64,000 bases of DNA, from assembly GCA_026182355.1 (NCBI GenBank), contig JAPFBL010001929.1:124001-188000 (forward strand), read 5' to 3'. The position numbers and the translations under genes are program-made. Shown piece after piece: positions 1,986 through 48,422 of the stretch (positions are counted from its first letter, which is position 1; the number at the start of each line of letters is the position of its first letter). Below the pieces are notes generated by a model that saw nothing but the letters and a program-made list of their open reading frames with translations, did not search any database and was not told the origin of the DNA. This DNA comes from Hermatobates lingyangjiaoensis (lineage: Eukaryota > Arthropoda > Insecta > Hemiptera > Hermatobatidae).

Positions 1986-2007
1986 CGATACATATATTAA
2001 TATATAT

Positions 2008-2205: not shown

Positions 2206-3529
2206 AGATATGTATATTAAACGATGAAAAGAAAAGAACACGGTGAAACAGCAACAATGTTCTATATTACAACCACATCTTCATCAGAAGAAGAAAACTC
2301 TGCTGCATAGACAAACAGCATGGCCTGCTGATATCAGTATAGTTTATTTAAAAAGACTTAAGACGATAATCAGTCTTTATTACATCTTGAGTGCACTCAC
2401 TATCCGAATGGCACTAATCGACTTGACTTTATTACCATCTCAGAGCAAACCAAAGTCCAACTAGATTGGCTTGATTCCCTCTGGAACAATGCATTCCCCA
2501 AAGGCCAACCTCCCAATTAACTTGACAACGCCACTGCACAATCTTTACCTAGTTATAAACTTTACAACTTTTAACAAACCCATTCATACATTTAATGTAT
2601 CTGTGATTATCATTTAAATTATTATAAACTTTTTAATCTCGTAAATTTTCGTATCTACCTACTTGCAGGACAATTCCTTAGGGTATGCTATTGAAAGTGA
2701 TCTCACCCGTTCATCCATATTTCATTCTGCAACTTATTCGATTACCTATTGTCGATTCAATATTTTTTACTTATCAGAAATATTTTTTAAAGATTTTTTT
2801 CTTTATTTTTAATTTATTGTATTTTGTTGTTATCATCGTCTCAATCTTTTTTGTCTCTTGGTCATATTTCTTATAATGATAGAAATAATAATTAATTTTT
2901 CTAATATCAGTCAGTTTTATGGTGAAAAAAAACATACGCTGTAAGATGGTTTATAATAATTTAAATGATAGTAATAAACCTCTGTGGTAATAAGACTATT
3001 AACAGTGTTCTAGGGACATACTGGAGGCAATAACATAATCTAACAATAGAAACTGTATATTATGAAATTATCTCGAGAAATTTAGACCCAAAAATTAAGT
3101 TTTTTTAACTCCGCATGTTGAAACCTGAGTTGTTCATATGTAGAGTTCAAAGGCCTGCTGGGTGGTAAAAACATGTGTATGTCAGTATTAAACTGAGATA
3201 GATCCTCGTAAGGGGCACAGCTATTAAATTAGGTAGAAAATCCAGCAACAGAAGTATAAATAGGGCAAAACGAAAGTAAAGTATAGTTAGATAGGTTCGA
3301 CAGGTGTTCCATGGCACGATTATAGACATCCCGGTCCATCAAGACCGTATTTGTTATACTTCAGGGGTAGGTGTTGCTATTAAGGGTTTGAGAGGTGATG
3401 GGTAATTCGATACATATCAAATTGGAAAATAGGTTGTGTTAAATGTTAGTTAATACCTGGAATCTATTGACATGTGAGTTGTGTTCTTTCTATCTATTAT
3501 TATTTCTCTGGAAATTTATTAGGATGCAG
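2206..3529. other. No gene recognised
   Basis: AT-rich sequence with short open frames on both strands. A frame near 2290-2470 is open for about 70 codons but matches nothing I know. No splice-bounded coding block or terminal repeats seen. Confidence 0.5.
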
Positions 3530-9852: not shown

Positions 9853-9919
9853 TGAATAAAACATTTGCATTTGGAAACCATTTGTATTTTTTCTAGCACG
9901 AATAAATATGATAATATTA

Positions 9920-10140
9920 AATAAAAACGAATTAAAACGAAGGTACCACACAGATAGACAAAGGAATAACTCACTTCTATGTTTCGACGTCGTCGCCATC
10001 AGGAGGCGAAGAGTACCGCAGGTAGACAAGGTGGAGACTCTTCGTCTTCTGATGACGACGATCGTCGATATATACAAGTGAGTTATTCCTTTCTTTATCT
10101 GTGTCCTACCTTAGTTTCAAATCGTTTTTATTTAAAAGTT
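9920..10140. repeat. Inverted pair IP1, hammerhead-like ends
   Basis: Arms 9920-10003 and 10044-10140 are inverted relative to each other (AGGAATAACTCACTT against AAGTGAGTTATTCCT, plus flanking blocks). The centre contains CTGATGA, CGACGATCGTCG on the + side and CTGATGG, CGACGACGTCG on the minus side. The GAA element is lost on the + side, so neither arm is a complete motif. The short Arg-rich and Asp-rich frame here is a by-product of the arms. Confidence 0.65.
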
Positions 10141-10790
10141 CGCTGGACCGTTTCATTTAATTATCATAATATTAATGTATAACAGATAAATTAATGATAT
10201 ATATCTGTTTTATATATCAGTTTGTGACCGATTCCACAAACGTCTGTTTCACAAACGACATTTGGATAAAGGTATTTAAAGTGAAAATCTTTTAATATTA
10301 GAGTCAGAAATAAATATCAACTCTTAATGCTGGTAAAATAACGGAATGGGTTAACACTGAAGTCAATAAACTTCAGTTTATTGAAGTTAAGCAATACCAG
10401 ACTTAAGTCAAACAGAAATATGAAAGTAAACGTTTGTGGAAGTGTTGAAACATTCAACCCTTTAAAGTCAAGTGACTTAAGTTTTAGCTTAAATGTCAAT
10501 ATTTATACCATCAACTCTATTGTAAATACGAAACATCCTAACACATAACGTCATAGTAACTTTAGCAGCATTTCCTTTATTTCTTCAGTAATTAATTGTT
10601 TCATGAGGAGTAGAATTAATAAATATAATAATATTTACATTCTGGTCATTAACAAAGAGAGAGAAATTTTCAATGTATTATTGATTGCTGCTTTTTACGA
10701 TGTAACAAATTTAACATTTACAATTACGTTTATAAATTTATTACTTTCCGATACACTATAACTCCTTACAACCGAAAATAACCACTTATT

Positions 10791-10970
10791 ATTTTATTGT
10801 TTAAACTGATCCCCTAGAGAGTTAAAAACGTCAGCCCTTTACGGTCTTTTTGTTTGATCCGTGATTCTATATTGGGAGTCTTAAATTTTTCCTAACTCAA
10901 GTGCATTTAGAGTAGGGATATCTTTAAAGAGTACCTGACATCGTACAGGCTCGGGACCGACGGACAATTT
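10791..10970 (-). mobile_element. tRNA-derived SINE, headless fragment
   Basis: Reverse-oriented tail 'a' (AAACTGATCCCC, ACGGTCTTTTTGTTTGATCC) and body up to GTACAGGCTCGGGACCGACG. The tRNA head is missing. Confidence 0.8.
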
Positions 10971-11387
10971 CTTGGCAACACTGATTGAGAAGGTAATTGA
11001 CTGTAAACAACATCAATTTTTCCTGAAGTTAGTTAACCAAGAATAGCCTAGAAGAATGTAAAGTCCACGCTTTTGAAATTTTCTGCTTCTTCTAAACAAG
11101 AAACCTATTTATACAAGTTAGCAAATATTATTAATACTATACTAATGTTTCGGTTTCACATCGACCATTTTCAAGGTTATTTTTACACAATTTAAATTAT
11201 ACACACTACATAACAATAACAACATAACAATGATACATCATCATCATGTTGGTGTATAAGAATAAAAATCTTGGAGAATTGATATATCTAGTCCCAAACT
11301 CTTGCAAGCCAGAAGTCAGAAGATGGGAAAAGTTAACCCGAAAAAGTAGTGAAATTAGAAATAGGCATAGGTTTTAACAAAACTTGT

Positions 11388-11515
11388 ATATATATATATA
11401 AAACTAAGAAAAAGACAATTGGGTTTTTGATGCTGATGAATACCGCTTGTCACGGTTGAAATATCTTAGTCTTTTTTTACCATTTCATACTGTGGTTTGA
11501 TCATAGATATATTAT
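11388..11515 (+). repeat. Family D terminal segment, single arm
   Basis: After a short (TA)n tract comes a single copy of the family D arm: GGGTTTTTGATG, CTGATGA, stem II ACCG/CGGT, GAA, ATATCT, then TTAGTC and TGTGGTTTGATCAT. Stem I and stem III each carry changes relative to 17398-17440, so it is a decayed motif. Confidence 0.6.
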
Positions 11516-12989
11516 AACTAAATTTAAAGGTACCGTAAAATAATTTTATTTTTTTATTTTTTCTGTATGCTAATAATTCTTTAATTGTTGGTGACTCGAG
11601 CGTTTCGAAGTAGATGCACACATGCCAACGGCAGATAGTTGGATATAAATATTAACGAAAACAAAAACATGAAAAACCTTTTTTCTGTCAGGTTCTAATT
11701 GCTTCTTCAATTCTCGAATTTTGTAAGCCATTAAATTTTTTATTTTCAAACTCGTAAAAAAAAAAAACGTTTTTAGATCTAGAGCTCTTTTTAATATTTT
11801 AAGAGGTAAGCAAGAGTGCAATAGATTTCTCCCCGTTGACAGGCTACCCGGTATAGAAGGGGGTGGCAACCCCCATTAAAGCCTGTCAGGGGGTTGCTTC
11901 TTCCCTCTGCTATTCCATGCCTTATTAATTTCCAACAACCCTCCCATTAAAACCTGTTACGGTAATAATTCACTTAAAAATATTTTGAAACAATTTTAAA
12001 CTTGCAAAAAAAAAGAAGGATTTTTTAAAGTATGCTATACTTTGGTAAAGTTTTGAGCTCTTAATTTCTTATATTCAGTATGAACAAATGAGAATTAAAG
12101 TTACTACTTTACAATGCTTAATTAAGTCAAGTTTTGAATACTTTTGAACCTGTTTAACCACGAATTAACACCTTGTTTTCACTGTTTAGCAAATTTGAGG
12201 GCTACATTATAATATATCATTTGTTTGAACACGACTTTCTTTGAGATTTTGAAAAATCTACATACTAATGTACCATATTTATTTGCTATTTAAAAAAAAT
12301 TATCATATATTTTTATGAAAAATTACGTCACAGATAAGAAGTGAATCGTTTGGGGTTAAAAGTCTTTTCTTTTCCTTCGTTTGACACTCACACGCACAAA
12401 CACAAGTACACTGTCACGATCATCTGCCATCTCTTGACTTTATTGCAAAAATTCGATTGCAACGAATATATAAAACACCCTCACTAAAAATACAGTGTTG
12501 ACAATATTTTAATAATAAAGGACTAATTTTGAACATTAATAATATTCAAAATTTATTTTACAAAAAAAAAATACAAAATAATGGGATATTCAAAATATGT
12601 GATATAATTATCTGTTTCAAGAAACTAGATAACGTTACTTTCTTACATTATGCTGTGTTACAACAGAAAGTTAAAAATATACTAAATGAAATGTTATCAT
12701 AACCAATTTATTGTATATTTTTCTGACACAAAAATTACATAATCTGTTTTGCAAAAACTAAATAAAACACTTTCTGGTATAATATACTATTACCAGTAAC
12801 TGACACACAACATATAAATTAAATAAAACTGTTTAACACATTGTGCTCTTACAAAGAAATAACTAAAACAGTTCCTTCAGTGTTGGTAATACACGAAAAC
12901 CTGAAATTCTAACTCTCATTTAAATTTTATCTTCTGATTCCTCAAGATAAGATGTTTCCTCCTCGTTATCTATCTCCCTAATGGATCTA
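11516..12989. other. No gene recognised
   Basis: Very AT-rich. Short frames only, no repeats shared with the rest of the window noticed. Confidence 0.5.
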
Positions 12990-13214
12990 TATTGTTGTCC
13001 TAAATATTGCCTAACTCTAGTGTATTTAGAACAGGGATTTTTGACGAGTACCTGATATCGTACAGGATCAGGACCGACGACTTAATGTTCTCTCCGATTG
13101 ACGGCGTGTTAATTTTTTAACTCCTGTGAGAAAAAAAAGTGATTGTTTGATTTAGATTGAAACAGGTTCTACTAACCAAGAGGTGAGCATGCAGCAACTG
13201 GGCTACCTTGGCCC
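12990..13214 (-). mobile_element. tRNA-derived SINE, diverged
   Basis: Reverse copy: GCCTAACTCTAGTGTATTTAG, GAGTACCTGATATCGTACAG and the head GGGCTACCTTGGCCC at the right. The B box region is poorly preserved. Confidence 0.65.
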
Positions 13215-13344
13215 AGAGTGCCTTAGAGTTTAGTAAAAACTGATTTCTTGTTTTCATGTTATATAACTTCAATGATGTTCTTTCTGAAAAAGCAGGGTGT
13301 TCGGGTACCTGCTTTTCCAAATCCATTTTTTTAAAGTGGATTTA

Positions 13345-13868
13345 TATTTTTAAGAAGGCGTGTATTCAGATTGTTCAAAATAAGTGTGTCCGCCTTATAG
13401 CCAGGGCTCCTTGGTACGCCCGTAATGTTGATATTCACCATAATTTGCAAATGGAATCCATATATAGTTACATCACTTGACTTACTACCAATGAAGACAA
13501 CAAACTATCTACTCATCCAAACCTCCTGGTACAAACTCTAAATCCTGCCACCAACCTTCCTCAACCTCACTGAACTACTTCATTCACTAACTATCTGACT
13601 ACTTTTCCAACTCATGACTAAAAACATTGAAAACCATGACCTCAACAAGACCACATGACCGCGAATACGACTGTACAGACGAACTTAATATCTGACATGA
13701 ATTACTGACATTCCAAGTTATGGTAGCACAGTAAGCAAGCAGTAGAAGGCCTCCGGCCTGGAACTGCTGTTACGACGTGCACTATAGTGCGCGGATATAT
13801 TCGTTGGTCGTTGGTTGTTGATATTTTGAAATATAAATGCGGTAACACAGTCCGTAATAAAAAAAAAG
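13345..13868 (+). pseudogene. LINE (Jockey/R1-type) 3' end
   Basis: The frame reads IQIVQNKCVRLIARAPWYARN, then a DIHHNLQMESIYSYIT-like stretch. This is the pattern found at the C-terminus of Jockey-type reverse transcriptases (QNK-x-LR-x-I-x-x-APWYxxN-x-x-x-H-x-D/NL). A stop follows and further frames (THPN.LVQTL) continue it. About 300 bp of 3' sequence ends in TAATAAAAAAAAAG, taken as the poly-A end. 5'-truncated, hence inactive. Confidence 0.65.
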
Positions 13869-14246
13869 ATAATTTCTATTTAGACTTGTAATATCTTATG
13901 CTGAACATTACTCGTTGCATTGGTTGCCCTTTATGACTATTGTGTTGAACTATCCCTTCTCAGTACAGGAGCTCTTACTACTCCATTCCGTGCCCTTCAT
14001 AGTGGCTGGACACCATTGCATTAACCCATGGCAATTTATATAACAGAGATTTCGTAGTTCTTTCTTTAATGGTGTTAATTAGTACATTCGTTACTGAGTT
14101 TAAAAGGCATTAAAAACAAAAACAAAAATAAAAACAAAGTGAAATGGTTTAATTGATTACTTGTGCAATCTGTTATAGTGTGTATTTACTTCTACTGGGG
14201 GATTTCAAAAATTTTGTCTGCACAAAAAAAAAATTTAATATAAAAA

Positions 14247-14290
14247 CTAACAACGCGTTTCGAACACTTAGTGTTCTTCTTCAGGTTTAG
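14247..14290 (-). ncRNA. Hammerhead-like ribozyme motif E
   Basis: Minus strand: stem I CTA(A)AC/GTTAG (5 bp with one bulged A), core CTGAAGA, extra A, stem II GAACAC/GTGTTC, GAA, stem III ACGCGT (self-complementary), U17. All conserved core bases are present. Confidence 0.7.
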
Positions 14291-14874
14291 ATCTAATTAT
14301 ATATATATATTATATATATATATATAATATATATATTACTCGTATAATATATTGTTTGTCTTTGCATTTCATTTTTTTATTATCACTTACCCTTTGTTAT
14401 CCTTTATTATTTAATTACTTTATTAAATAATTTTATTTTTTAATTATTTCATTTTTTATTATTTCATTACTTTATTTACTTAACATTATTATTTGTATTC
14501 TTAATTTTATTTTATTTTATCATGGCTTAGTCCGTACTTTTTATATATTTCAATTCCCCTGTTCAACCCTCATTTTTTCTTTTCTTTATTTATTGTTTCT
14601 TCATATTCCACTAATTTAATTTAATTATAAATTGATTCTCCTGTCTATCTTATTTTCTGTGACCGGGCGCACATGCGGCGTTGGTCTTCAACTATCTCTG
14701 AACCAGTGCGCTTGGTTTTCCTCTCTTATCCCTTCTGAGGAGACTGTAAGTGTATGTGCTTTTATGTGGGTTTTAAGAACATCAAAGTGAATTATTTGAA
14801 ATTGAGTACAATATATTGTAATTGACTTTCTTGTTCTTAAAACTCTTAGAATGGATAGGTTTTTTTTTTAGGTA

Positions 14875-14913
14875 AACCTGAAGAAGAACACTCAATGTTC
14901 GAAACGCATTGTT
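14875..14913 (+). ncRNA. Hammerhead-like ribozyme motif F
   Basis: Same family as motif E. Stem I AAC/GTT (3 bp), core CTGAAGA, extra A, stem II GAACA/TGTTC, GAA, stem III ACGCAT, U17. Stem III has one change from ACGCGT, so it is no longer self-complementary. Confidence 0.55.
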
Positions 14914-15311
14914 AGTTTTCATATTAAACTTTTTCTTTTGTATGGAGATGTATTTTTTTGAAATCCCCTTAATATAAAATGATTTCGTTTGTGATTTAAG
15001 AGAATATTGCTTTACGGGGGAGGCATGTACTAACAGTGACCTGGCTAAGTGAGTTCTTATCAATATGACCACTTAGACTAATTGAAATGTTGTCTCATAA
15101 ATATTGAATGATAATTAAGGGGACTTGACAAGGAGGCTGGCTGCTAACCACTGGGTAAACAAGATAAGGAATAAATCCTATTGCTTGCACCAGACGGATT
15201 TATCTCTTGAAACAGACGCCACAGTGCACCCACCGACACTGCCCGACTTCACCAGCCAGTCTTGTTTCTAACTTATTCCACCCAAAGGAGTTGTGCAACG
15301 CCTAACCTATA

Positions 15312-16233
15312 CGAGGTGTGTAAATAAAGTAGTGAGACTGATTTTTTTTAAATTTTCTATTCAAATATAATTACAATGTGATATTGTCACCTTCAAAATA
15401 GTTCTCTTCGGAAGCCACACAGCGCTGGAGACGGTCCTTCCAATCATTGTAGCATTGCTGGAACTCGGATTCTGGAATGGCCTTCAGCTGGTCGGTTACA
15501 CCAGTTTGTATGTTTTGTAGTGTCCCGAAATGAGTTCCCTTGAGGTGATTTTTCAATCTCGGAAGAGGAAAAAGTCACAAGGACTCAAGTCTGGTGAATA
15601 AGGAGGCTGAGGATCAACAGGAATGTTTTTACTGGCCAAAAACTGAGATCCTTTTGGTCTTGGGAAAGGTTTTTCGGAACCATTTTCGCACAAATTTTTC
15701 TCATCTCCAATTCATTGGTCAAAATGTGATGAACGGAGGTGTGATTCAAATTCAACTGTTCCCCGATCATTCTGACTGTCAAGCGTCGATCTGAACGCAC
15801 AAGGTTCCTTACTCTGTTGACATTTTCATCGGTGTTTGCACTTGAAGGCCTTCCGCTTCGTGGTTCATCTTCAATCGACTCTCTTCCTTCTGAAAATTCC
15901 TTAAACCACCGAAAAACCTGTGCCCTTGATAAAACACGTTCTCCATAGGCCTCCTGAAGTTTTTCAAAAGTTTCGGTTGCATTATGTCCAAGTCTGAAGC
16001 AAAATTTGATTGCACACCGCTGCTCAACTTTGAGGTCACTCATTTTTAAAACGCTCAAGAAAAAACCATTTCACGAAAACCAACGCTACGGACAAACAAA
16101 TGACTGTGGCGAGTTCAGATTCATACTGGAGGCGCATCACACGTGCACCTGACGCTACTCAAGGCCACGCGTCTCCAGCGTTGCCAGATCGAAAACGACG
16201 TTGCCAGTCTCACTACTTTATTTACACACCTCG
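15312..16233 (-). mobile_element. mariner element, internally deleted
   Basis: Perfect 29-bp terminal inverted repeats (15312-15340 and 16205-16233) flanked by TA at 15310-15311 and 16234-16235. Length is 922 bp against roughly 1.3 kb for complete mariners. The transposase gene on the minus strand has lost its middle. Perfect termini next to a damaged gene suggest movement by a transposase supplied elsewhere, or a recent deletion. Confidence 0.93.
15371..16043 (-). pseudogene. mariner transposase, deleted and frameshifted
   Basis: Starts at ATG 16043. The N-terminal DNA-binding region is intact: a first helix-turn-helix, FRWFKEF, then SGRPSS and a second helix-turn-helix around HTSVHHIL. After about 120 residues (SQDQK) the sequence jumps into the end of the catalytic domain: in other frames YSPDLSPCDFFLF (third catalytic Asp) and LKNHLKG...WKDRLQRCV. 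The region holding the first two catalytic Asp residues is deleted. There is a one-base loss near 15556 and a frame change at the deletion junction. Cannot be active. Confidence 0.9.
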
Positions 16234-16639
16234 TAAATCAGAGAATTCAATTTTTTTCCATTTGACCACTCACTTTTAACTCTGATTTTTTTTGCTACCC
16301 AAAAAAATATATTGAAATATAAATAGTAGTTTCACTTCATTATAAATATCAAAAATAAATATCAAAGCTATGTTTTAACCATTACTTTAATATAGTAATT
16401 ATAACATTACAATTATAATGCATTATAACAATAATATTCAGGGCATTTATTTGGTGTTTTTAATATCTTTGTTATTTTAATTGCTTGTTATTATGACAAA
16501 TATCAGGCTGAGTTCCGGTATAGTTCTGGTTATATAAATTATTTTTCATATATAAATTAGCTACCATATATTATCAGTATTTAATTTTTGTAGTTATCAA
16601 ATCAATTACAGATGTATATATATATATATATTTTCCTGC

Positions 16640-16850
16640 ACCAAGGAACCATGCAGAAGAGGCACATGGTATTCCCCTGTCTAGGCAGAACCTGGTTGAG
16701 GGTACTACCATCCTACATGTTAATAGCGATTTCAATAGACTTAAAATCTTAGAAGCTCTGTACATTAAAGACTTGTTACCTAGTTTAAATGTACAAAGTA
16801 ATGACTTCAATGTAATTCCTAGTTTTAAGAATATATATAATTTTTTTTAA
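16640..16850 (+). pseudogene. PLE-C, GIY-YIG endonuclease end
   Basis: A + frame reads EEAHGIPLSRQNLVEGTTI, then LKILEALYIKDLLPSLNVQ, matching the same blocks of PLE-B (EVHGTALTRQTLVEGTT; ILEALYIKD). It is preceded by a (TA)n tract at about 16616-16632, where the copy appears truncated. Ends at a stop near 16850. Confidence 0.7.
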
Positions 16851-17040
16851 ATTAGTAAGAAAAGAGGGCGATGACCGAGTTAGGTTGAGTTGAAGGGCCA
16901 TGAGTTTTTTGTTGACCTGCACTCACCCCTACTCCATCCCCACCACCAACTTTCACTTCGACAGAAAGCAGTTTTCAGTTGGCATTTAAACGCCAAAGTA
17001 GTTTGTAATATGTATATTTAGTTAATATAAGTAGTTTAAG

Positions 17041-17075
17041 AACCCGATGATGACCCATGGGGCCGAAAGCTTGTT
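17041..17075 (+). ncRNA. Hammerhead-like motif C (decayed core)
   Basis: Stem I AAC/GTT, core CCGATGA (U4 changed to C), extra U, stem II GACCC/GGGCC with one mismatch, GAA, stem III AGCT, U17. It lies about 190 bp after the PLE-C endonuclease, the same spacing as motif B after PLE-B. The core change predicts loss of activity. Confidence 0.5.
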
Positions 17076-17156
17076 ATCTTAGTTTAATCTAGTGTAGTGT
17101 TTAATTAAATATAGTTATCCCCAGTGAAGTGTTTATTTAGTGTTTCAGCCTTCTGA

Positions 17157-17275
17157 ATGTCGTATGCTAGTTTGCTTTGGCAATTACCACCTTCTCAAAA
17201 GAAAATTGTAAGGAAAATAGAAGCTATAAGTAGGAAGATCGTGAATGCAGAATCTGCTATCAAATTCAATATATA
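17157..17275 (+). pseudogene. PLE-C, next ORF start
   Basis: The frame SYASLLWQLPPSQKKIVRKI followed by EAISRKIVNAESAIKFN runs into a (TA)n tract and stops. It parallels the decayed segment after motif B and completes the endonuclease, pLTR, ORF start order. Confidence 0.45.
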
Positions 17276-17331
17276 TATATACATATATATATATATCAAT
17301 GATCAAACCACAATAAGAAATGGGAAAACAA

Positions 17332-17374
17332 GACTAAGATCTTTCAACCGTAACAAGTGGTCTTCGTCAGAGTC
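17332..17374 (-). ncRNA. Hammerhead-like ribozyme motif D1
   Basis: Minus-strand arm of IP3: stem I GACT/AGTC, core CTGACGA, extra A, stem II GACC/GGTT-type hairpin, GAA, stem III AGATCT, U17. The stem II loop side differs from D2 by one base. Confidence 0.65.
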
Positions 17375-17397
17375 AAAACCCATCTAGTTGGGTTTTT

Positions 17398-17440
17398 GAC
17401 TCTGACGAAGACCGCTTGTTACGGTTGAAAGATCTTAGTC
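17398..17440 (+). ncRNA. Hammerhead-like ribozyme motif D2
   Basis: Plus-strand arm of IP3: stem I GACT/AGTC (4 bp), core CTGACGA at 17402-17408, extra A, stem II GACCG/CGGTT, GAA at 17427-17429, stem III AGATCT (self-complementary), U17. Confidence 0.7.
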
Positions 17441-17569
17441 TTGTTTTCCCATTTCTTATTGTGGTTTGATCATTGATTGTTATTTCACGTGTTTATGTGA
17501 AATCTTATTATATATATATATATATAACTGAAAAAAACAATACATAAAGAACGAGAACACTTGCTACTG

Positions 17570-17605
17570 GATCAATATTTCCAACCGAAGTTCGTCTTCA
17601 GGAAG
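17570..17605 (-). ncRNA. Hammerhead-like motif I (partial)
   Basis: Minus strand: core CTGAAGA, extra C, GAAC with an imperfect partner GGTTG, GAA, stem III ATAT, U17, GATCC. Stem I pairs only 2 bp. Related to motif H in stem III and spacing. Confidence 0.4.
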
Positions 17606-17695
17606 AGAGTAGAAGGGAAGAAGAAGAGGTACGTGTGTACATGGCGCGGGTGAGTCGCTTTCCACCCTGTCCGGTTTTGACTGTTTGGTAATTTC

Positions 17696-17728
<33 letters not shown>

Positions 17729-17932
17729 AAATTTTTGGTGATTTACAAGACCGTGGATTTACCTCAACCTGTTGAAATCTAAATTTTCCATATTTTCCGG
17801 TTATTACTTTAATTTGATGGACAGGCGCTTTGCATCAGCTGAGATACTGCGTCGTTCTGTACATGAAAAGGATTGTGTGTTTCAATCTGCTTTGTTACTA
17901 CTTTTATTTCTAGTTTACATAAACATGGCACT

Positions 17933-18271
17933 GTTAGGTTGGGTTAGGTTGTTGTGGTCATCCCACGAAAGAACGCATTTAGGCCAAAGATTGCCTCCTG
18001 TGTGATACCAAACAATTAACATTCTACTTTGGAAGTGTTAAATTTTGCTTAACTCAAGTGTATTTAGAGTAGGAATCTTTGACGAGTTTTTGACTTCGTA
18101 CAGGCTTGGAACAGCTTAATCTCCTCTCCGAGGGACGATGTACTCAGATTCATTTAATTTCCCGCGTGAATAAATCGAAGGCCAGAGTGGGTCTACTGGT
18201 TTACTGGTAATAAAACCCTGAATCTACCAGATCAGAGATGTGCACGCAAGCCACTCGGCTACCTTGGCACC
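17933..18271 (-). mobile_element. tRNA-derived SINE, CCTAA-tailed
   Basis: Reverse copy with tail type 'b' at the left: TTAGGTTGGGTTAGGTTG, the CCCACGAAAGAACGC block and GTGTGATACC. Then the shared body (CTTAACTCAAGTGTATTTAG, GTCCC-type block, GCGTGAATAAATCGA) and a diverged head with an insertion at the B box. Confidence 0.8.
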
Positions 18272-18656
18272 TCAGTAATAGTATAGTTAGCATCACTAAT
18301 GTTTTATTATTAATTCAAATACATATTCTAAAAGAGTGGTTTTAGAAATGTATATGTTTTGGTAACAATTACCTCTCTTTAAGAAAAAATTGAAATATAC
18401 ACTGATCTTATTAGTAATTTTATGACTGTGTTATGAGAGTAGAATATTGACTAGTGAATGAATGAGTGCAAACGGAACATTTGTAGAAATCTTGAGTTGA
18501 GTTTAAATATTTCTTCATTAATCACTATAATAATCACTATAACTCACTTGTCGGACACAGATTTCAATACAGCCTTACTCGTCTATTTTGACTATGCTTT
18601 TCAATGATTTATTTAACAATGATAATATTTCAAGTTATAAAATTAAAGACATCCAA

Positions 18657-18945
18657 GGGGCCAGTTTAGTTCAGTGTTTAACGTACTCGCCTTTGGGCTG
18701 GTAGTCGAGGGTACGATCGCCCACCTGGCCCTCGATTGATTCACAGGGCAGGTGTATCAATTGAGGTTCCGAGCCTGTACGATGTCAGGTACTCGTTAAA
18801 GATCCCTACTCGAAATTTACTTCAGTTAGGAAAAAATTCAGGACTCCGAATGTAGGATCTGCAGAAACACCGATCAAACAAAAAGCCGGTAAACGGCTGA
18901 TGTTATCATCCGCTAGGGGATCAGTTAAACAATAAAAAAAAAAAA
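18657..18945 (+). mobile_element. tRNA-derived SINE, tail type 'a'
   Basis: Head GGGGCCAGTTTAGTTCAGTG, TACTCGCC, B box region GTACGATCGCCC, CCTCGATTGATTCAC, GTCAGGTACTCG, then AAAAAGCCGGTAAACGGC, GGGGATCAGTTAAAC and poly-A. Confidence 0.85.
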
Positions 18946-19470
18946 GATAACCAATTTTATTAATATGCATAGCTGCTTAATTATGAAACAAAGAGGTAAA
19001 TTAAATGAAATAAAAAGTATAATTGAGCAAATAATAACGAATGGATAAATGAGCAGTGTGTTATTAAGAAATATAACTGCTATCGTTAGTTCCATAAGCG
19101 AGAAGTTAAAGGCATTTCGAATGCGATGATAGTGATGGTATTAATAAATAACTGCATTGTTGTTTCCATAATCGCGTTGGCAAAGACATTCTTAACTATT
19201 AAGAAGATTGAAGATCTCACTTATTGAGATTCGGATATGTTACATCATAAGATGTAACTTTTAATTATACTTTCATCAGAATTAGTAAAGTGGTTATAAC
19301 TAAAATAATTCAATTAATTTAAATGATGGTGCATTATGTTTGATTGTTGCTTTTCTTATAGCAAAGTTGAAAGCATATCATTCCACATTTTATTTTTTAA
19401 ATGTGGAATACATATATTTAAAAAAAAAACAATATTTTATATTTGACTAATAGTCTAATAGACTAATAGT

Positions 19471-19740
19471 GGGTCAGGTTAGCTCAGTGGTTAACATACT
19501 CGCCTCTGAACTGATAGGACCGGGGTTCGATCCCACCTGGCCCTCGATTTATTCACGCGGGAGGTGAATAAATCGAGCCTATACGATGTCAGGTACTTGT
19601 TAAAGATCTCTACTCTAAATACACTTGAGTTAGGCAAAATTTAGGACTCCCACTGTAGAATCAATCTTCATTGTGTGGTATCACAAAGGGCTAATGCTCG
19701 GTTTAAGTGTGGGACTATCATTGCAACCTAACCTAACCTT
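19471..19740 (+). mobile_element. tRNA-derived SINE, CCTAA-tailed
   Basis: Clean head GGGTCAGGTTAGCTCAGTGG (A box) and GGGGTTCGATCCC (B box). The body is shared with the other copies up to GGACTCCCACTG, then tail 'b': GTGGTATCACAAAGGGC, GTGGGACTATCA and GCAACCTAACCTAACC. The best example of the second tail type. Confidence 0.9.
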
Positions 19741-20609
19741 ATTTTTGACTACGAATATATATTATAATTGAAGAGCAATCTAACAAATACCTGAAGTCGA
19801 TGGCTGAATGGTATAGAGGTCATACTTGTATGTCCACTTGTAAATGAATTCAGCTTTATCACATCTATGTCACAACAGTTTGCGTCTCGATGTGCATTCT
19901 TCAACAGTGTTAATGTTTAATGTTAATGGCGTTAATGTTCCCTTTTGTGTTTTTATTAAAACATTAACCGTGGTTCATCTTCTTGAAATAAATAAAAATA
20001 ACATAGATCTTTTAAACTCGACAAATCTGTTTCTTTGTCCAAGCGCCTCAATTTAAGGTTTATATCTACTTCAAATTACCTGCGGTCTATTATTTTCCGA
20101 CATTCAGTTTTTTCTTTTTGTAAATTTTAATAAAATTCCTATCTTGCTATTGTGTGTGACAAATAAATACAACAAATTGTTCTTTTAATATTATTGTCAA
20201 AAACTGTAAGAAAAATAAGTACAGAAACACTTCAAGTGGGTACAAGTATGTGCGGAACAATGAAAATATAAATACAAATGTATTTTTCTACACATAGTAT
20301 GATTGGAATAAATTATTTCTAACTTTTTTGGTTACAAAGATATATACATAGAGAATGTCTGGATTCTTTCCAGGTCAATATAATGAGATTGTGAAACCCT
20401 AGATGACGTCACTGGAAGGAATGTTTTTCGATCAAAAGTTCTTCGACTTTTCAAAAGTTATTTAATTTTTAAACATTTTACTATTTACATTTTTCATTTT
20501 TATTTTATCACTAGTAACTTTTACAGATTGAGACGTAGCTGACAAAGTTATCCATTTAGAACTATTCAAGATGTCATAATGATACCTGTATGGCTTAATA
20601 GTGACATAC
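19741..20609. other. No gene recognised
   Basis: AT-rich sequence with one 70-codon frame (19844-20056) that matches nothing I know and has no splice or repeat context. Confidence 0.4.
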
Positions 20610-20616
20610 AGAGAGG

Positions 20617-20678
<62 letters not shown>

Positions 20679-20775
20679 GTGAGAGAGAGCCAGAGGGAGC
20701 TAGCGGGAAGGACAGAATGAGAGAGAGTGAGCGAGAGAGGCAGAATGAGAGAGAGATCGAGAGACAGACTGAGAG
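20610..20775 (+). repeat. (GA)n microsatellite and degenerate flank
   Basis: An almost pure GA run to about 20675, then degenerating GA-rich sequence. The Arg-Glu frame through it is a translation of the repeat, not a gene. Confidence 0.95.
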
Positions 20776-21449
20776 AGATTGCTTAGTTTAATTAGTTGAT
20801 AAAAATGAGAAAAAAACAGTACTTTTTATATATGAATACTGTTTTTTAATAATATGTATATGAACTTTTTTCTATGTATATGAGGTATTACATAGGCACT
20901 ACTTAATCAGAAAATTTTCTAAAAAATGAGACCTTTCCAATTAAAGTTGGTTATTCTTTCTTCATTTCTGAGGTACAAGCGGGTACCTAGACAACACATA
21001 TTTTATATTGATATTTATATTTTATTATAATTCATGTTCGATTTTTTTACGTATGCCTGTTCTTATTTGCGATTTTACAACGTGAATTCCATTATAGTTA
21101 AGGTTATATGCGGTTTTAAGCTAATGTAAATGTGTATGCCTTAGCAATTTCTCGGCTCACATACGCTCTATATGATATAACGGATAGATAACAGAATCTA
21201 TCGTTTATATACAGTTTGGATACTATTTGAGGAATAGATTTCACGTAAGTAGCCTGAAACACGCAACTGGAGCCAACTCTGTATTTGTCTGAAGTCAATA
21301 TTCATAAGAATAAAAAAAAACAAACAATATTTTATTTATTTGCCTATTTCTATTATGGAATGTGGGTTTGAGGATCTGCTAGAAACCTGCACTTGTGACA
21401 CTGATTCCTTAAGGGAATATTGTGTCTCCATAGATAACGCATTGGTAGT
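20776..21449. other. No gene recognised
   Basis: AT-rich intergenic or intronic sequence with short frames only. Confidence 0.5.
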
Positions 21450-21672
21450 CATGTGCTTTGCCTAATTCAAGCGTATTTAGAGTAACTATCTTTAACAAGT
21501 TCCAGGCATCGTATAGGCTTGAAACCGACGACATAACATCATCTCTGAGGGAAGAAATACTCAGATTTTTTCATTTCACATATGAAGAAATTGAAGGACA
21601 GAGAGAGAATCGAACCCTGATCTACTAGTACAGAAGCGAGTAGGCAAGTGACTGCACTACCATGACACCAGC
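21450..21672 (-). mobile_element. tRNA-derived SINE, diverged
   Basis: Reverse copy: GCCTAATTCAAGCGTATTTAG, body block near 21500, AGAATCGAACCCTGAT (B box) and a diverged head ending near ACCATGACACC. Confidence 0.7.
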
Positions 21673-22384
21673 TCATCTCTTCCTTCATATGTTCTATCCA
21701 GCTCCGTCTATATTTTCCTTTGAACTAAGAAAGATAGCATTCTTGCTTGGAAAAGTAGCTCAGCCTCTTGCGAATCAAACAAACAAATCTGTTTGTTCAG
21801 TTGTTTCAGATGTTGAAAACGTATAAGGCAAATAAAATGAATTTTCTGAAGTTGACATACTCTATTAGTACTTCGTATCAGGAATGTAACTATTGTACAT
21901 AACTTACTTCTATTTTGTACTTTTAATAATCTGTTATATATATATATAGGTGTATAATGTAATCGGGATTCGGTCAATTTTTCAGGATCAAAATCAAACT
22001 CTCAATGCCGACGTTTCGGTTTTATTTAAAACCTTTTTCATAGGCCTACAAACAAAGGATGACAAAAAATCATATATAAACATCAACATATAACTAACAT
22101 CAAAATGGAATATTACAGTTGTGAAAAAACAAAAATATATATACAAGTAGAAGTAATAGAAAAGCAATAAACATTTTTATGAACTTACAGAAGTCAGAAT
22201 TTTTGAATTAGAAAAATGATGAAATTTACATTATATAAAATGAAGTAACAATAGATAGTTAGTGAACTAACATCTTAACTGGTCAAAAACTTGGACCAGA
22301 CTAACTGATTACAATTACATGTAAACCGAACACTGTTCACTCAAAGAACACAAAAGGAACTAAGGAAATTAAATTTCACTAAAA

Positions 22385-23104
22385 TCAACTTAACACTCCT
22401 GAATAAATAGTGTTCAAATTGGTAATGTCACTTCTATGATTAACTGAACTTAGATCTTTTTTAATATATAGCATTTCGAGGGTCTTTCTTCTTTGCTCAT
22501 CTTGTTCTTTATCTACTATAATTGCTTCTTCAAAATCGAACATGTGACCTTCGTTTAAGGCATGGAATGCTAAAGCAGTGGCGTTACTTTTATTAGTTCT
22601 TATTGAATAAGAATGTTGATAAGTCTTTCTTTTAAAAAAACGACTTGTTTCTCCGTAATAACGCTTGTCGCAGTCTTTACATTTGATCGCATAAATGAGG
22701 TTACTTTGTAACTCCTTTGGTATTTTTTGTTTCAAATTTGAAAATAAAGACTTGACTTTTCTTTTGTTATAAAATGCCAATGTAACTTCAGGTACATTTC
22801 GTTTGAAAACTTTTCTAATTGATTGTGATAAGCCCTCAACATACAGAAATTTGAAATACTTTTTATTTAAAACTTCAAGTTCAGCATGATTTTTATTGGA
22901 ATGTTCTGGTTGTTCTCTTGTATATTTAAACCAATAACGTTCAATTAAGTTGTTTGGATAACAATTTTTCTGCAACAATGACTTTACCCTTTTCTTATTT
23001 TCTTTTAGAAAACATGGACTACTAATTTCAACAACCTTCTTAACTAAATTTTGAACGCAATTCAATTTTTGGTTTATAGAATGAGAGGAGTGATAGTTCA
23101 GTAT
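22385..23104 (-). CDS. PLE-D left copy: RT thumb plus GIY-YIG endonuclease (5'-truncated)
   Basis: Open from the palindrome centre with no start codon, about 240 codons. N-terminal part: HSINQKLNCVQNLVKKVVEI, then YPNNLI, typical of the end of PLE reverse transcriptase. Then a linker, the endonuclease LIYAIKCKDCDKRYYGETSR with an H near TYQHSYSI, the S-N-A-T-A-L-A-x-H zone, and the LEMLYIKKDLSSVNHRSDI C-terminal helix. In PLEs this nuclease cuts the target DNA for reverse transcription. The catalytic RT core is missing, so it is a remnant, but the frame is uninterrupted. Confidence 0.9.
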   Translation of the reverse strand: MLNYHSSHSINQKLNCVQNLVKKVVEISSPCFLKENKKRVKSLLQKNCYPNNLIERYWFKYTREQPEHSNKNHAELEVLNKKYFKFLYVEGLSQSIRKVFKRNVPEVTLAFYNKRKVKSLFSNLKQKIPKELQSNLIYAIKCKDCDKRYYGETSRFFKRKTYQHSYSIRTNKSNATALAFHALNEGHMFDFEEAIIVDKEQDEQRRKTLEMLYIKKDLSSVNHRSDITNLNTIYSGVLS

Positions 23105-23108
23105 TCTT

Positions 23109-23829
23109 ATACTGAACTATCACTCCTCTCATTCTATAAACCAAAAATTGAATTGCGTTCAAAATTTAGTTAAGAAGGTTGTTGAAATTAGTAGTCCATG
23201 TTTTCTAAAAGAAAATAAGAAAAGGGTAAAGTCATTGTTGCAGAAAAATTGTTATCCAAACAACTTAATTGAACGTTATTGGTTTAAATATACAAGAGAA
23301 CAACCAGAACATTCCAATAAAAATCATGCTGAACTTGAAGTTTTAAATAAAAAGTATTTCAAATTTCTGTATGTTGAGGGCTTATCACAATCAATTAGAA
23401 AAGTTTTCAAACGAAATGTACCTGAAGTTACATTGGCATTTTATAACAAAAGAAAAGTCAAGTCTTTATTTTCAAATTTGAAACAAAAAATACCAAAGGA
23501 GTTACAAAGTAACCTCATTTATGCGATCAAATGTAAAGACTGCGACAAGCGTTATTACGGAGAAACAAGTCGTTTTTTTAAAAGAAAGACTTTATCAACA
23601 TTCTTATTCAATAAGAACTAATAAAAGTAACGCCACTGCTTTAGCATTCCATGCCTTAAACGAAGGTCACATGTTCGATTTTGAAGAAGCAATTATAGTA
23701 GATAAAGAACAAGATGAGCAAAGAAGAAAGACCCTCGAAATGCTATATATTAAAAAAGATCTAAGTTCAGTTAATCATAGAAGTGACATTACCAATTTGA
23801 ACACTATTTATTCAGGAGTGTTAAGTTGA
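23109..23829 (+). pseudogene. PLE-D right copy, one-base frameshift
   Basis: Same protein as the left copy, read outward on the + strand. It is identical as far as the arginine-lysine stretch after the GIY-YIG core; then a single extra T (GACTTTATC against GACTTATC in the left copy) shifts the frame. The remaining ~100 residues continue in the next frame. The left copy lacks this lesion, so the insertion happened after, or during, formation of the palindrome. Confidence 0.92.
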
Positions 23830-24300
23830 TTTTAGTGAAATTTAATTTCCTTAGTTCCTTTTGTGTTCTTTGAGTGAACAGTGTTCGGTTTACATGTAAT
23901 TGTAATCAGTTAGTCTGGTCCAAGTTTTTGACCAGTTAAGATGTTAGTTCACTAACTATCTATTGTTACTTCATTTTATATAATGTAAATTTCATCATTT
24001 TTCTAATTCAAAAATTCTGACTTCTGTAAGTTCATAAAAATGTTTATTGCTTTTCTATTACTTCTACTTGTATATATATTTTTGTTTTTTCACAACTGTA
24101 ATATTCCATTTTGATGTTAGTTATATGTTGATGTTTATATATGATTTTTTGTCATCCTTTGTTTGTAGGCCTATGAAAAAGGTTTTAAATAAAACCGAAA
24201 CGTCGGCATTGAGAGTTTGATTTTGATCCTGGAAAATTGACCGAATCCCGATTACATTATACACCTATTCTATCCAACGGTTGATATATTATTGAATTTG

Positions 24301-24346
<46 letters not shown>

Positions 24347-24396
24347 GTTTCACGATGAATCACAAACACAGAACTAAGGAACAAACTCTCTTACTG

Positions 24397-24429
24397 TCAC
24401 TAATTTTCTGTTGAACCGTCATCAGGAAA
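24397..24429 (-). ncRNA. Hammerhead-like motif J1
   Basis: Minus strand: TTTC, CTGATGA, extra C, GGTT/AAC stem II, GAA, AATT, A17, GTGA. The core is complete, but stem I pairs poorly (T-T mismatch). Confidence 0.45.
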
Positions 24430-24536
24430 GTTGAGAAAGGGATACCAAGCGCACTTGTGAAGCGACGGTTGGAGACGGTTGGATGGTTGGTCTCCAACCG
24501 TCGCTTCACAAGTGCCCTTGGTATCCCTATCTCAAC

Positions 24537-24569
24537 TTTCCTGATGACGGTTCAACCAAAAATTAGAGA
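24537..24569 (+). ncRNA. Hammerhead-like motif J2
   Basis: Plus strand: stem I TTTC/GAGA (one T-G pair), CTGATGA, extra C, GGT/ACC stem II, AAA in place of GAA, AATT, A17. G12 is changed to A, while stem I is better than in J1; the two arms have different lesions. Confidence 0.45.
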
Positions 24570-24663
24570 CAGTAAGTGTGTTTGTTCCTTAGTTCTGTGA
24601 CTATAAAACTTTCAATTACACAAAGCACGACACAGAAAAAAGAATAAAATGAACACTTACAGA

Positions 24664-24699
24664 ATTCAATATTTCGAACTGTTGTTCGTCATCTGGAGT
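24664..24699 (-). ncRNA. Hammerhead-like motif H' (decayed)
   Basis: Minus strand: ACTC, CAGATGA (U4 changed to A), extra C, GAAC/GTTC, GAA, ATAT, U17, GAAT. Same family as motif H, with core and stem I changes. Confidence 0.45.
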
Positions 24700-24995
24700 A
24701 GACTAGAAGAGAGGACGAAGTGAGAGAGATCTCCCCACGTCGAAGAACGGAGCGCGAATGTGTCGCTCTTGACACTGAGCACTGAGCCCTGGTGTTTGCC
24801 GTGTCGGTTACCAGCCGTTGCGTCTACAACGTCCTTGGTCTCCATTTCTCTTTTCTCCTGAAGACGGATTGAGTTTGTAAGTGTTCTCCGAAAATTTGAG
24901 TTTGTAAGTGTGTTTCTTTACTTTGTGTGCTACCTATCTTCAATTTTGAAATATATATATAAATATTGATAAAAGTATCGACCTTGGAATAGAAA

Positions 24996-25287
24996 CAAAA
25001 CTAAGGTTTTTCGGGACTCGGTTAGTTCTTCAAGTTCAAATTAAACTCTCATTGCCAACGTTTCGGTTTTTTTTTTTTTAAACCAAACTGTTCAGTGTCA
25101 TGTTCATTCAGACTGCAGTTGTTGTTAAAATCTACATACTATTTCTCTTTGTAAAATAATTTTAATGTAATACTTAGTTTTTCTGTTTCCAAAGTTATAC
25201 TTCTGCCTATGAAACCGAAACGTTGGCAATGAGAGTTTAATTTGAACCTGAAGAACTGACCGAGTCCCGATAAACTTTAGTTTTGTA
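24996..25287. repeat. Inverted pair IP6, PLE-D-type ends
   Basis: Arms 24996-25071 and 25211-25287 are inverted copies of a terminal segment related to PLE-D: AAACCGAAACGTTGGC, AATGAGAGTTTAA, GAACTGACCGAGTCCCG, against the PLE-D end AACCGAAACGTCGGC, GACCGAATCCCG. The flanks TGCC/GGCA and ACGT stem III are present, but the core is reduced to TATGA, as in PLE-D itself, and stem II is shortened. Confidence 0.75.
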
Positions 25288-25641
25288 TATATATATATAT
25301 ATACATATATACTTAAAATAAACTGTGATACATAGACTGAAACATAACAAAGACTCACTTTTCAGTCTATGTGTTACACTTTATTTTAAGTGTAATCTGT
25401 CCTGCCGAACCGTTTTTGCTTATCATGGTATCTATATATATATATGTTATGAAGGGGAACCACAGGTATATATATATACATTTTTTTAATGATTCGCACT
25501 CCGTCCTTCGACGTGGGGAGATCTCTCTCACTTCGTCCTCTCTTCTATTCTACTCTATATGATGAACAACAGTTCGAAATTTGAATTCTGTAAGTGTTCT
25601 TTTTATTCTTTTTTATGTGTCGTGCTTTGTGTAATTTAAAG

Positions 25642-25643
<2 letters not shown>

Positions 25644-25681
<38 letters not shown>
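25644..25681 (+). repeat. (TA)n microsatellite
   Basis: A nearly pure TA tract between the right arm of IP7 and the third copy of the same terminal segment. Confidence 0.95.
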
Positions 25682-25683
<2 letters not shown>

Positions 25684-25698
25684 CGATGATGAGTATAT

Positions 25699-25734
25699 AT
25701 TCCTGATGACGAACAACAGTTCGAAATATTGAAT
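25699..25734 (+). ncRNA. Hammerhead-like ribozyme motif H
   Basis: Stem I ATTC/GAAT (4 bp), CTGATGA at 25703-25709, extra C, stem II GAAC/GTTC with AACA loop, GAA, stem III ATAT, U17. At 36 nt it is the most compact complete copy in the window, followed by the GTCGTGCTTTGTGTAATTTA end and (TA)n. Confidence 0.72.
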
Positions 25735-25935
25735 TCTGTAAGTTTTCCTTGTATTCTCTTTTCTGTGTCGTGCTTTGTGTAATTTAAATTTTTATATATA
25801 TATATATATATATATAAATTAATAATCAACAATAACTCTTGATATAATATATGAAATAACTATATATATAAATTATACATTTAACTATATATATGAATTA
25901 AACACTACAATAAACAATTATATATTAATTAAAAT

Positions 25936-25967
25936 GCTCTAAGGCCTTTCGTTACATCATCAGAGAG
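25936..25967 (-). ncRNA. Hammerhead-like motif L1 (stem II shortened)
   Basis: Minus strand: stem I CTCT/AGAG, CTGATGA, TGTAAC, GAA, stem III AGGCCT, U17. Stem II has lost about three bases compared with L2 and can hardly form. Confidence 0.45.
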
Positions 25968-26122
25968 TAAATGAAACTTTTAATGACGTTCTGTGAACAC
26001 TATTACGTACAGGCCCTATCGAGGCGTCTCACCTCGATATATTAGATTATATATTAGATAGATATATTAGAATATATGTATTAGAAAATATATTAGATTA
26101 TATTTTTTGTTTGTTTCGTTTA

Positions 26123-26158
26123 GCTCTCTGATGATGTTGTAACGAAAGACCTTAGGGC
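26123..26158 (+). ncRNA. Hammerhead-like ribozyme motif L2
   Basis: Stem I GCTCT/AGGGC (5 bp, one T-G), CTGATGA at 26128-26134, extra U, stem II GTT/AAC, GAA, AGACCT (one change from self-complementary AGGCCT seen in L1), U17. Confidence 0.55.
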
Positions 26159-26266
26159 ATTTTAATTAATATATAATTGTTAATTGTGGTGTTTAATTCA
26201 TATATATTTATATATATAGTTAAATGTAGAAAAATAAATAGAGAAATTAAAAGCACACACTTACAG

Positions 26267-31214: not shown

Positions 31215-31220
31215 TTTATT

Positions 31221-48268: not shown

Positions 48269-48422
48269 TATAAATTTAGTTTATTCCATTTAATAAATTA
48301 AAAAGAAGTTAGTTAACGAACATGGATGCAACATCTCAGTGAGAGATCCTGGGTGTTCTTGTTAAACGTTTTATTTTTAATTCATTACTGCGCAGTCTGT
48401 TTTTAGATATTTAATCAAATTA

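What the first reader, a model, noticed from the sequence alone, without database searches (positions are those of the whole stretch)
9920..26228. Hammerhead-bearing ends occur as head-to-head inverted pairs with ribozymes facing outward
Eight loci (9920-10140, 14198-14968, 17294-17477, 21946-24268, 24367-24599, 24608-25642, 24996-25287, 25879-26228) are inverted pairs of PLE-type terminal segments. In each the left motif or remnant is on the minus strand and the right one on the plus strand, so the 3' ends lie outside and the truncated 5' sides meet in the middle. Unrelated families share the same topology, which points to a common mechanism, for example second-strand hairpin priming or template switching during PLE insertion, not chance. 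Read-through RNA would fold into a long hairpin with a ribozyme at its 3' shoulder.
Basis: partly seen in the sequence, partly recalled or inferred. Interest (0 to 1): 0.88.

Follow-up and report, generated by a model that had tools for sequence, protein, structure and literature searches.

The report
Head-to-head Penelope retroelement insertions
This stretch of animal-like DNA holds at least eleven mirror-image pairs of Penelope-type retroelement ends, all pointing outward; three are framed by duplicated flanking DNA, so each of those likely went in as one unit, probably because both cut strands of the target started copying the element's RNA, an arrangement already on record for Penelope elements.

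Summary
All eight loci are inverted pairs, left arm minus, right arm plus, ribozyme-side (3') ends outward. Three more hammerhead-type pairs (2016-2166, 5078-5324, 48413-48535) and one uncertain pair (50053-50390) share the geometry. The motif is the minimal Penelope-like (PLE) hammerhead: CTGANGA, one extra base, stem II, GAAA, short stem I. Pairs E, A2 and C lie between direct flanking words of 10, 13 and 17 bp, with a 32-34 nt 'tail' on one side only: single insertions. This is the published PLE signature (PMC3846280), so the kind is known. My addition is the reading: two-sided target-primed reverse transcription, each 3'-OH of a staggered cut priming a cDNA. It rests on one-sided tails in five pairs and on published extension of both target strands by a PLE protein (PMC11167929). 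Fold-back of one cDNA stays a strong rival, best for the 2.3-kb palindrome. A ribozyme on the shoulder of a hairpin RNA is not supported: folding buries it. Genome-wide counts could not be made (genome search did not complete).

The parts
9911..9920 (.). E: left target-site duplication ATAATATTAA
   Evidence: exact 10-mer, 3 plus-strand occurrences in 64 kb, two of them flank this pair
9921..10014 (-). E: left arm, PLE end with hammerhead remnant
   Evidence: 86% identical to the right arm; outer end set by the duplication
10037..10131 (+). E: right arm
10132..10165 (+). E: one-sided 34-nt tail
   Evidence: between right arm end and right duplication, absent on the left
10166..10175 (.). E: right target-site duplication
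2003..2015 (.). A2: left duplication TATATATAGATAT
   Evidence: only two occurrences in 64 kb, both flank this pair
2016..2085 (-). A2: left arm with an internal deletion over the ribozyme
2086..2166 (+). A2: right arm
2167..2198 (+). A2: 32-nt tail
   Evidence: aligned with the A1 tail
2199..2211 (.). A2: right duplication
5078..5192 (-). J: left arm with degenerate hammerhead
   Evidence: motif by eye
5215..5324 (+). J: right arm with degenerate hammerhead
   Evidence: motif by eye
14198..14293 (-). B1: left arm, intact PLE-type hammerhead descriptor
14869..14968 (+). B1: right arm, intact descriptor
17297..17385 (-). A1: left arm, intact descriptor
   Evidence: 97% to the right arm, descriptor hit at 17370
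17386..17475 (+). A1: right arm, intact descriptor
17476..17511 (+). A1: tail of about 36 nt with a 9-bp stem-loop; outer end uncertain by a few bases in a TA run
21932..21948 (.). C: left duplication TGTTATATATATATATA
   Evidence: only two occurrences in 64 kb, both flank this pair
21949..23104 (-). C: left arm, 1156 nt, 5'-truncated ORF with a weak GIY-YIG match, and PLE end
   Evidence: 2 differences from the right arm; PF01541 E=0.0013, below Pfam's cut-off
23105..23108 (.). C: 4-nt spacer TCTT at the palindrome centre
23109..24265 (+). C: right arm, 1157 nt
24266..24298 (+). C: 33-nt tail
   Evidence: aligned with the left tail of C2
24299..24315 (.). C: right duplication
24346..24366 (-). 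D1: possible 21-nt tail on the left side
   Evidence: by eye, between the left arm end and the TA run
24367..24476 (-). D1: left arm
24490..24599 (+). D1: right arm
24602..24759 (-). D2: left arm
25492..25648 (+). D2: right arm; a further direct copy lies at 25698-25796
24962..24992 (-). C2: tail on the left side, about 31 nt
   Evidence: aligned with the C tail
24993..25069 (-). C2: left arm
25212..25288 (+). C2: right arm
25871..26033 (-). F: left arm; its inner 54 nt recur at 26655-26708
26113..26221 (+). F: right arm, intact descriptor at 26128
48413..48453 (-). B2: short left arm
48454..48535 (+). B2: longer right arm, truncated inside stem II
50053..50103 (-). I: left arm, no ribozyme recognised
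50340..50390 (+). I: right arm, no ribozyme recognised

Best explanation
Each close pair is likely one head-to-head insertion of a Penelope-like element made by two-sided target-primed reverse transcription: a staggered cut would leave two 3'-OH ends, each would prime a cDNA inside the element RNA just 3' of the hammerhead, and the two cDNAs would then be joined at their 5' (truncated) sides. Shown here: inverted geometry in 12 of 12 pairs; a PLE-type hammerhead or remnant, on at least one arm, in 11 of 12; direct flanking words of 10, 13 and 17 bp around pairs E, A2 and C; a tail on one side only in A1, A2, C, E (32-36 nt) and C2 (about 31 nt). Inferred: that those words are target-site duplications; that the tail and tail-less ends are two RT start sites, one used by each target strand; that near-equal arms in short pairs (A1, D1, E, J, and A2 if its internal deletion is allowed for) reflect both cDNAs running to the same RNA 5' end; how the cDNAs are joined. 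The 2.3-kb palindrome C needs either one broken RNA copied twice or fold-back of one cDNA.
For: The flanking words enclose arm + arm + tail as one unit. The tail is one-sided in A1, A2, C, E (right) and C2 (left); if the second arm were a copy of the first cDNA it should carry the tail too, or stop short at a fixed base. The tail-less ends of A1 and A2 lie at the same base. Arms cluster by locus in four pairs: A1L-A1R 96.6% against 84.5-91.2% for A1 arms against other A copies; C 98.6% and C2 93.5% against 69-76% between C and C2; D1 93.6% against 64-75% for D1 arms against D4 and D6. B2 (41 against 82 nt) and F (163 against 109 nt) have unequal arms, as two cDNAs can have. Flanks are TA-rich. 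Literature: a purified PLE protein cleaves and extends both target strands and starts RT at two adjacent internal sites that bound the 'tail' (PMC11167929).
Against: C has arms of 1156 and 1157 nt with a 4-nt spacer; two independent truncations would seldom agree so well, and a 4-nt loop is what a DNA fold-back gives. D2 shows no tail on either side, D1 at most a 21-nt one, and tails could not be read in B1, B2, F, I and J, so the one-sided tail is seen in 5 of 12 pairs. B1's arms do not cluster together, nor do A2's (84.5% over 58 columns, against 85.1-91.2% to A1 arms). Informative flanking duplications were found for 3 of 11 pairs tested (J was not tested); in the score, which discounts TA, only E of the three passes the 95th percentile of the cross-locus null (7 against 6; C scores 4, and A2's word 4, below another A2 word at 5). 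No intact element of these families is at hand, so native junction sequence is unknown, and no RT domain was found.
Confidence: 0.5

Rival explanations
1. Fold-back second-strand synthesis: one cDNA primed at the target folds at its 3' end, primes itself, and copies back to near the target, giving a palindrome with outward 3' ends.
For: Near-equal arms with small spacers in C (4 nt), A1 (0), D1 (13), E (22) and J (22); C arms differ at 2 positions in about 1157. D2 has the same tail state (none) on both sides. Junction palindromes were earlier read as self-priming (PMC3846280), though on an antisense template.
Against: Should copy the tail to both sides; it is one-sided in the 5 pairs where a tail of 30 nt or more was seen. 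Does not give the unequal arms of B2 and F without later deletion.
Confidence: 0.3
2. Antisense-template self-priming, as proposed in 2013: an antisense PLE transcript primes itself at its 3' end, giving a head-to-head inverted repeat.
For: Gives the right polarity and palindromic junctions (PMC3846280).
Against: No transcript data here; does not by itself explain a one-sided tail that in another PLE lies between two RT start sites (PMC11167929).
Confidence: 0.08
3. Foldback or MITE-like DNA transposons that move as finished palindromes and happen to contain the motif.
For: Short palindromic units of about 150-235 bp at TA-rich sites; A1 and A2 share their centre within a few bases; A2's arms are no closer to each other than to A1's, as copies of one palindrome would be.
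Against: Flanking duplications vary (10, 13, 17 bp); ends are asymmetric because of the tail; A1 arms are closer to each other than to A2; C is truncated inside an ORF.
Confidence: 0.05
4. Some pairs are independent insertions that met by chance or by nesting.
For: B1 arms do not cluster and a D-type copy lies between them; D2 encloses C2 and another D-type copy.
Against: Does not explain E, A1, C, D1 and C2, nor why no one insertion shows a tail-to-tail pair.
Confidence: 0.06

Closest known systems
Penelope retrotransposons of the bdelloid rotifer Adineta vaga (PMC3846280; sections 6 and 11 and other passages seen)
   Same: Inverted pLTRs, most often head-to-head, palindromes at the inverted junction, 9- and 10-bp TSD around whole inserts, a 31-bp tail optional at one of the inverted pLTRs, AT-rich targets, and a few solo pLTR pairs with captured sequence between them.
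   Different: Typical insert there keeps a long direct element beside a short inverted pLTR; here most inserts are only two ends. Some inserts there have no TSD. Authors favoured antisense self-priming.
PAc, a Poseidon PLE of Anolis carolinensis (PMC11167929; parts 1 and 2 of 4 of the text and passages seen)
   Same: Hammerhead with one extra base between the CUGANGA core and stem II (read by eye from the RNA printed), roughly 100 nt upstream of two RT start sites that bound the tail; AT-rich cleavage.
   Different: Mainly biochemistry; what I saw does not discuss head-to-head inserts.
Inverted Penelope copies in Drosophila virilis introns (PMC1431729; passages seen)
   Same: Inverted Penelope pairs within 100 bp in introns, one predicted to form a hairpin RNA.
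   Different: No junction, TSD or tail analysis in the passages seen.
Metazoan retrozymes (PMC7761336; passages seen)
   Same: Small non-autonomous elements with type I hammerheads, perhaps mobilised by PLEs.
   Different: Sequence repeats bounded by hammerheads that give circular RNAs; not described there as inverted pairs with outward ends.

Membership tests
Penelope-like elements (PLE) | GIY-YIG endonuclease in the ORF (canonical PLEs) | tested here: inconclusive
   C arm ORF matches PF01541 at E=0.0013, 19.4 bits, below the curated 22.6, and hardly better than a likely chance match to another family (PF00423, E=0.0017) in the same scan; nothing at E<=0.001. No homologue in the protein search (its length limits exclude full-length PLEs), PDB sequences or viral contigs.
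Penelope-like elements (PLE) | Telomerase-like reverse transcriptase domain | not tested
   The longest copy found (C) is truncated before any RT; I did not scan the window's shorter frames for one.
Penelope-like elements (PLE) | Minimal type I hammerhead in the terminal segment | tested here: met
   12 descriptor hits, 10 with exactly one extra base, expectation 0.067 per class per 64 kb; stem I of 4 or more Watson-Crick pairs in 9 of 11 hits examined, 5.3% with random upstream sequence, 19 of 110 with another copy's (the hit at 50887 was left out). Rfam models do not list it. Cleavage not tested.
Penelope-like elements (PLE) | Optional tail of 30-40 bp at one 3' end | tested here: met
   About 36, 32, 34, 33 and 31 nt on one side of A1, A2, E, C, C2; D2 none, D1 perhaps 21 nt, five pairs not readable.
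Penelope-like elements (PLE) | TSD of variable length around inserts with an inverted pLTR | tested here: met
   10, 13 and 17 bp around E, A2, C; the 8 other pairs put to one search have no informative one; J not tested.
Penelope-like elements (PLE) | Direct-repeat pLTRs or partial tandem copies | tested here: inconclusive
   Only 25492-25648 and 25698-25796 are in direct order.
MITE / foldback DNA transposon | Symmetric termini and TSD of fixed length | tested here: not met
   One-sided tails and 10/13/17-bp duplications.
Retrozyme | Direct repeats of hammerhead units | tested here: not met
   Pairs are inverted; one direct pair seen.

The most novel reading that the evidence does not exclude
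PLE insertion is intrinsically two-sided: both 3'-OH ends of one staggered cut prime reverse transcription, one at the tail start site and one at the tail-less site, so that head-to-head inserts are the normal product and the short 'solo' pairs are complete insertion products from RNA 5' end to RT start site.
Probability: 0.4. Interest if true: 0.72.

Novelty: new member of a known kind. Interest (0 to 1): 0.42.

Why it matters
How Penelope-like elements integrate is unsettled in the papers I saw: the 2013 work inferred antisense self-priming, and the 2024 biochemistry leaves second-strand synthesis and later steps to be validated. A dense set of short head-to-head inserts, some with readable flanking duplications and one-sided tails, is good material for deciding between two-sided priming and fold-back, because the models predict different distributions of tails, arm lengths and junction loops. 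Long palindromes such as the 2.3-kb one could also be unstable DNA and a source of hairpin RNA.

Tried and rejected
Rfam hammerhead models: no hit at gathering nor at E<=10; several of the miRNA-type hits listed lie on the palindromes themselves. Protein homologues of the C ORF: none at E<=0.001 among 387 candidates, none in PDB sequences at E<=1, none in viral contigs. Assembly artefact: thought unlikely, since the palindromes end at element ends, three lie between duplications with a one-sided tail, and in 10 of 11 hammerhead-type pairs the arms differ by 3% or more; C is the exception and long reads would settle it. MITE reading: disfavoured (duplications and termini), though A2 alone would allow it. 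Ribozyme on the shoulder of a read-through hairpin: rejected for A1 and E by folding; other pairs were not folded. Inverted repeats at 5106-5302 and 57873-58467 were inspected: the first is pair J; the second shows no hammerhead and was left out. A 35-nt palindrome at 25308-25394 has no hammerhead and was left out. The flank-word score proved blunt at TA-rich sites, so exact-word uniqueness was added. Its high scores for B2 (7) and D2 (12) are not duplications at the arm ends: B2's word lies 48 nt away, D2's word is hammerhead sequence of neighbouring copies; D1's 8-mer lies almost wholly inside the arm. Papers on PLE hammerheads and phylogeny (PMC4209133, PMC5785218, PMC5850863, PMC8557442) are not held.
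Full report
Setting. The window is eukaryotic and animal-like: 34% GC, a BEL/Pao-type retroelement, a mariner-type transposase and Copia-type fragments (labels partly recalled). So everything below is from 64 kb plus papers.

The pairs. Self-comparison and gapped arm alignments confirm 8 of 8 listed loci as inverted pairs with left arm minus and right arm plus. The same kind of scan gives three more hammerhead-type pairs, A2 (2016-2166), B2 (48413-48535) and J (5078-5324), and one pair without a ribozyme that I could recognise, I (50053-50390). That makes 12 pairs, 11 with a hammerhead or a remnant on at least one arm (remnants judged by eye). All 12 are head-to-head. Under an even chance of head-to-head or tail-to-tail, 11 of 11 has probability 0.0005 (arithmetic). 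Same-family neighbours in other arrangements: 25492-25648 and 25698-25796 in direct order, and the right end of C against the left end of C2, tail-to-tail at 73% identity, which I read as two insertions. The other inverted repeats within 1.2 kb (SINE-like copies, mariner ends, a tandem array, 25308-25394, 57873-58467) are not hammerhead pairs. Motif copies without a close partner of their own lie at 274(-), 1565(+), 9818(+), 17601(-), 25703(+), 26275(-) and 50013(-), and D-type copies at 14640-14790(+) and 24770-24950(+); 11419-11508(+) is a family A copy whose left side is unclear. Four further hits of the looser pattern (44936, 50887, 34289, 10571) I take for chance.

The motif. A descriptor of CTGANGA, 0-2 extra bases, a stem of 3 or more pairs, then GAAA gives 12 hits in the window; 10 have exactly one extra base, against 0.067 per class in 60 first-order Markov windows. 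For 11 of these 12 (50887, with two extra bases and no stem I, was left out) the flanks form a stem I of 4 or more Watson-Crick pairs in 9 of 11; with random upstream sequence the rate is 5.3%, with the upstream sequence of another copy 19 of 110. Stem I differs between families (GACT/AGTC in A, AAAC/GTTT in B, ATTC/GAAT at 25703, TTATC/GATAA at 274), so pairing rather than sequence is kept. The one extra base is also present in the hammerhead of the anole element PAc, read by eye from the RNA printed in PMC11167929; there cleavage was seen only with protein added. Rfam models do not list it. Among the 11 pairs only A1 and B1 have an intact descriptor on both arms, and F on one; C and C2 have lost the core.

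One insertion per pair. E lies between two copies of ATAATATTAA, A2 between two copies of TATATATAGATAT, C between two copies of TGTTATATATATATATA; the last two words occur nowhere else in the window, the first once more on that strand. Between the right arm and the right copy lies an extension of 34, 32 and 33 nt that the left side lacks; A1 has about 36 nt, bounded by TA runs. C2 has the homologous extension on its left side. D2 has no such extension on either side, D1 perhaps 21 nt on its left, and B1, B2, F, I and J could not be read. Of 11 pairs put to the flank search (J not included), E, A2 and C are the ones with an informative duplication; A1, C2 and F have TA-run matches, B1 and I none, and the words for B2, D1 and D2 are not duplications at the arm ends. 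By the TA-discounting score only E of the three passes the 95th percentile of 110 cross-locus pairings (7 against 6); C scores 4, and A2's word (4) ranks below another A2 word (5). The case for A2 and C therefore rests on word uniqueness and position. Arms cluster by locus in A1, C, C2 and D1, but not in B1 or A2.

Known kind. PMC3846280 (sections 6 and 11 and other passages seen) describes this for Penelope in a rotifer: inverted pLTRs, most often head-to-head, palindromes at the junction, 9- and 10-bp TSD (some inserts without), a 31-bp tail optional at one of the inverted pLTRs, AT-rich targets. PMC1431729 (passages) reports inverted Penelope pairs in D. virilis introns, one predicted to form a hairpin RNA. 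PMC8969392 (passages) lists inverted pLTRs and short 3' extensions as PLE peculiarities. So this is a new set of members, not a new kind. The protein evidence is thin: a GIY-YIG match in C below Pfam's cut-off and hardly above a likely chance match in the same scan, and no homologue found.

Mechanism. The 2013 authors inferred self-priming on an antisense template. PMC11167929 (parts 1 and 2 of 4 and passages) later showed that a purified PLE protein cleaves and extends both target strands and starts RT at two adjacent sites that bound the tail. Put together with the present data: a staggered cut would leave two 3'-OH ends; each would prime an antisense cDNA; the left cDNA reads as a minus-strand arm and the right one as a plus-strand arm, with 3' ends outward and a duplication outside. 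A tail on one side and none on the other would then mean two different start sites, one per strand. Fold-back of a single cDNA should carry the tail to both sides. Near-equal short arms (A1, D1, E, J, and A2 with its deletion) fit two cDNAs that run to the same RNA 5' end; A1 and A2 share their centre within a few bases. Unequal arms (B2, F) fit two cDNAs of different length. Against this, C with 1156- and 1157-nt arms and a 4-nt spacer looks like fold-back, or one broken RNA copied twice; D2 shows no tail; and A2's arms do not cluster. I give two-sided priming 0.5 and fold-back 0.3. I saw no statement that links both-strand extension to head-to-head inserts in what I read; the paper searches were made, in an open-licence library only.

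Hairpin RNA. Predicted folds of read-through RNA are strong (A1 -172.4 kcal/mol, z -30.9; E -124.5 kcal/mol, z -15.7), but the hammerhead core of the sense arm pairs with the antisense arm. A ribozyme on the shoulder is therefore not what these two sequences predict.

Noticed in passing
31076-37034: BEL/Pao-type element with 139-bp direct repeats that are 100% identical and two long ORFs (31524-32606, 32593-36756), so likely a young insertion.
   Followed up: partly
15310-16235: Mariner-type element with 31-bp perfect terminal inverted repeats and a short ORF with transposase HTH domains.
   Followed up: partly
59383-63806: 203-bp direct repeats, 98.5% identical, around Copia-type coding fragments.
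   Followed up: no
24575-24585, 25590-25600, 26255-26270, 10078-10086: D- and E-type PLE ends carry GTAAGTG or GTGAGTT some 30 nt after the hammerhead, like a 5' splice site (by eye; consensus recalled).
   Followed up: no
57873-58046 and 58259-58467: Inverted repeat without hammerhead; a related copy at 53528-53631.
   Followed up: partly
27584-28036: Tandem array with a repeating TATAGAAAAGTATCTA-like motif.
   Followed up: no
3519-52951, many places: Abundant SINE-like repeat family, more than ten copies in the window on both strands (label recalled).
   Followed up: no
17476-17511: The A-family tail forms a 9-bp stem-loop in the predicted fold; the RT start region of the anole PLE is also described as a stem-loop (PMC11167929).
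   Followed up: no
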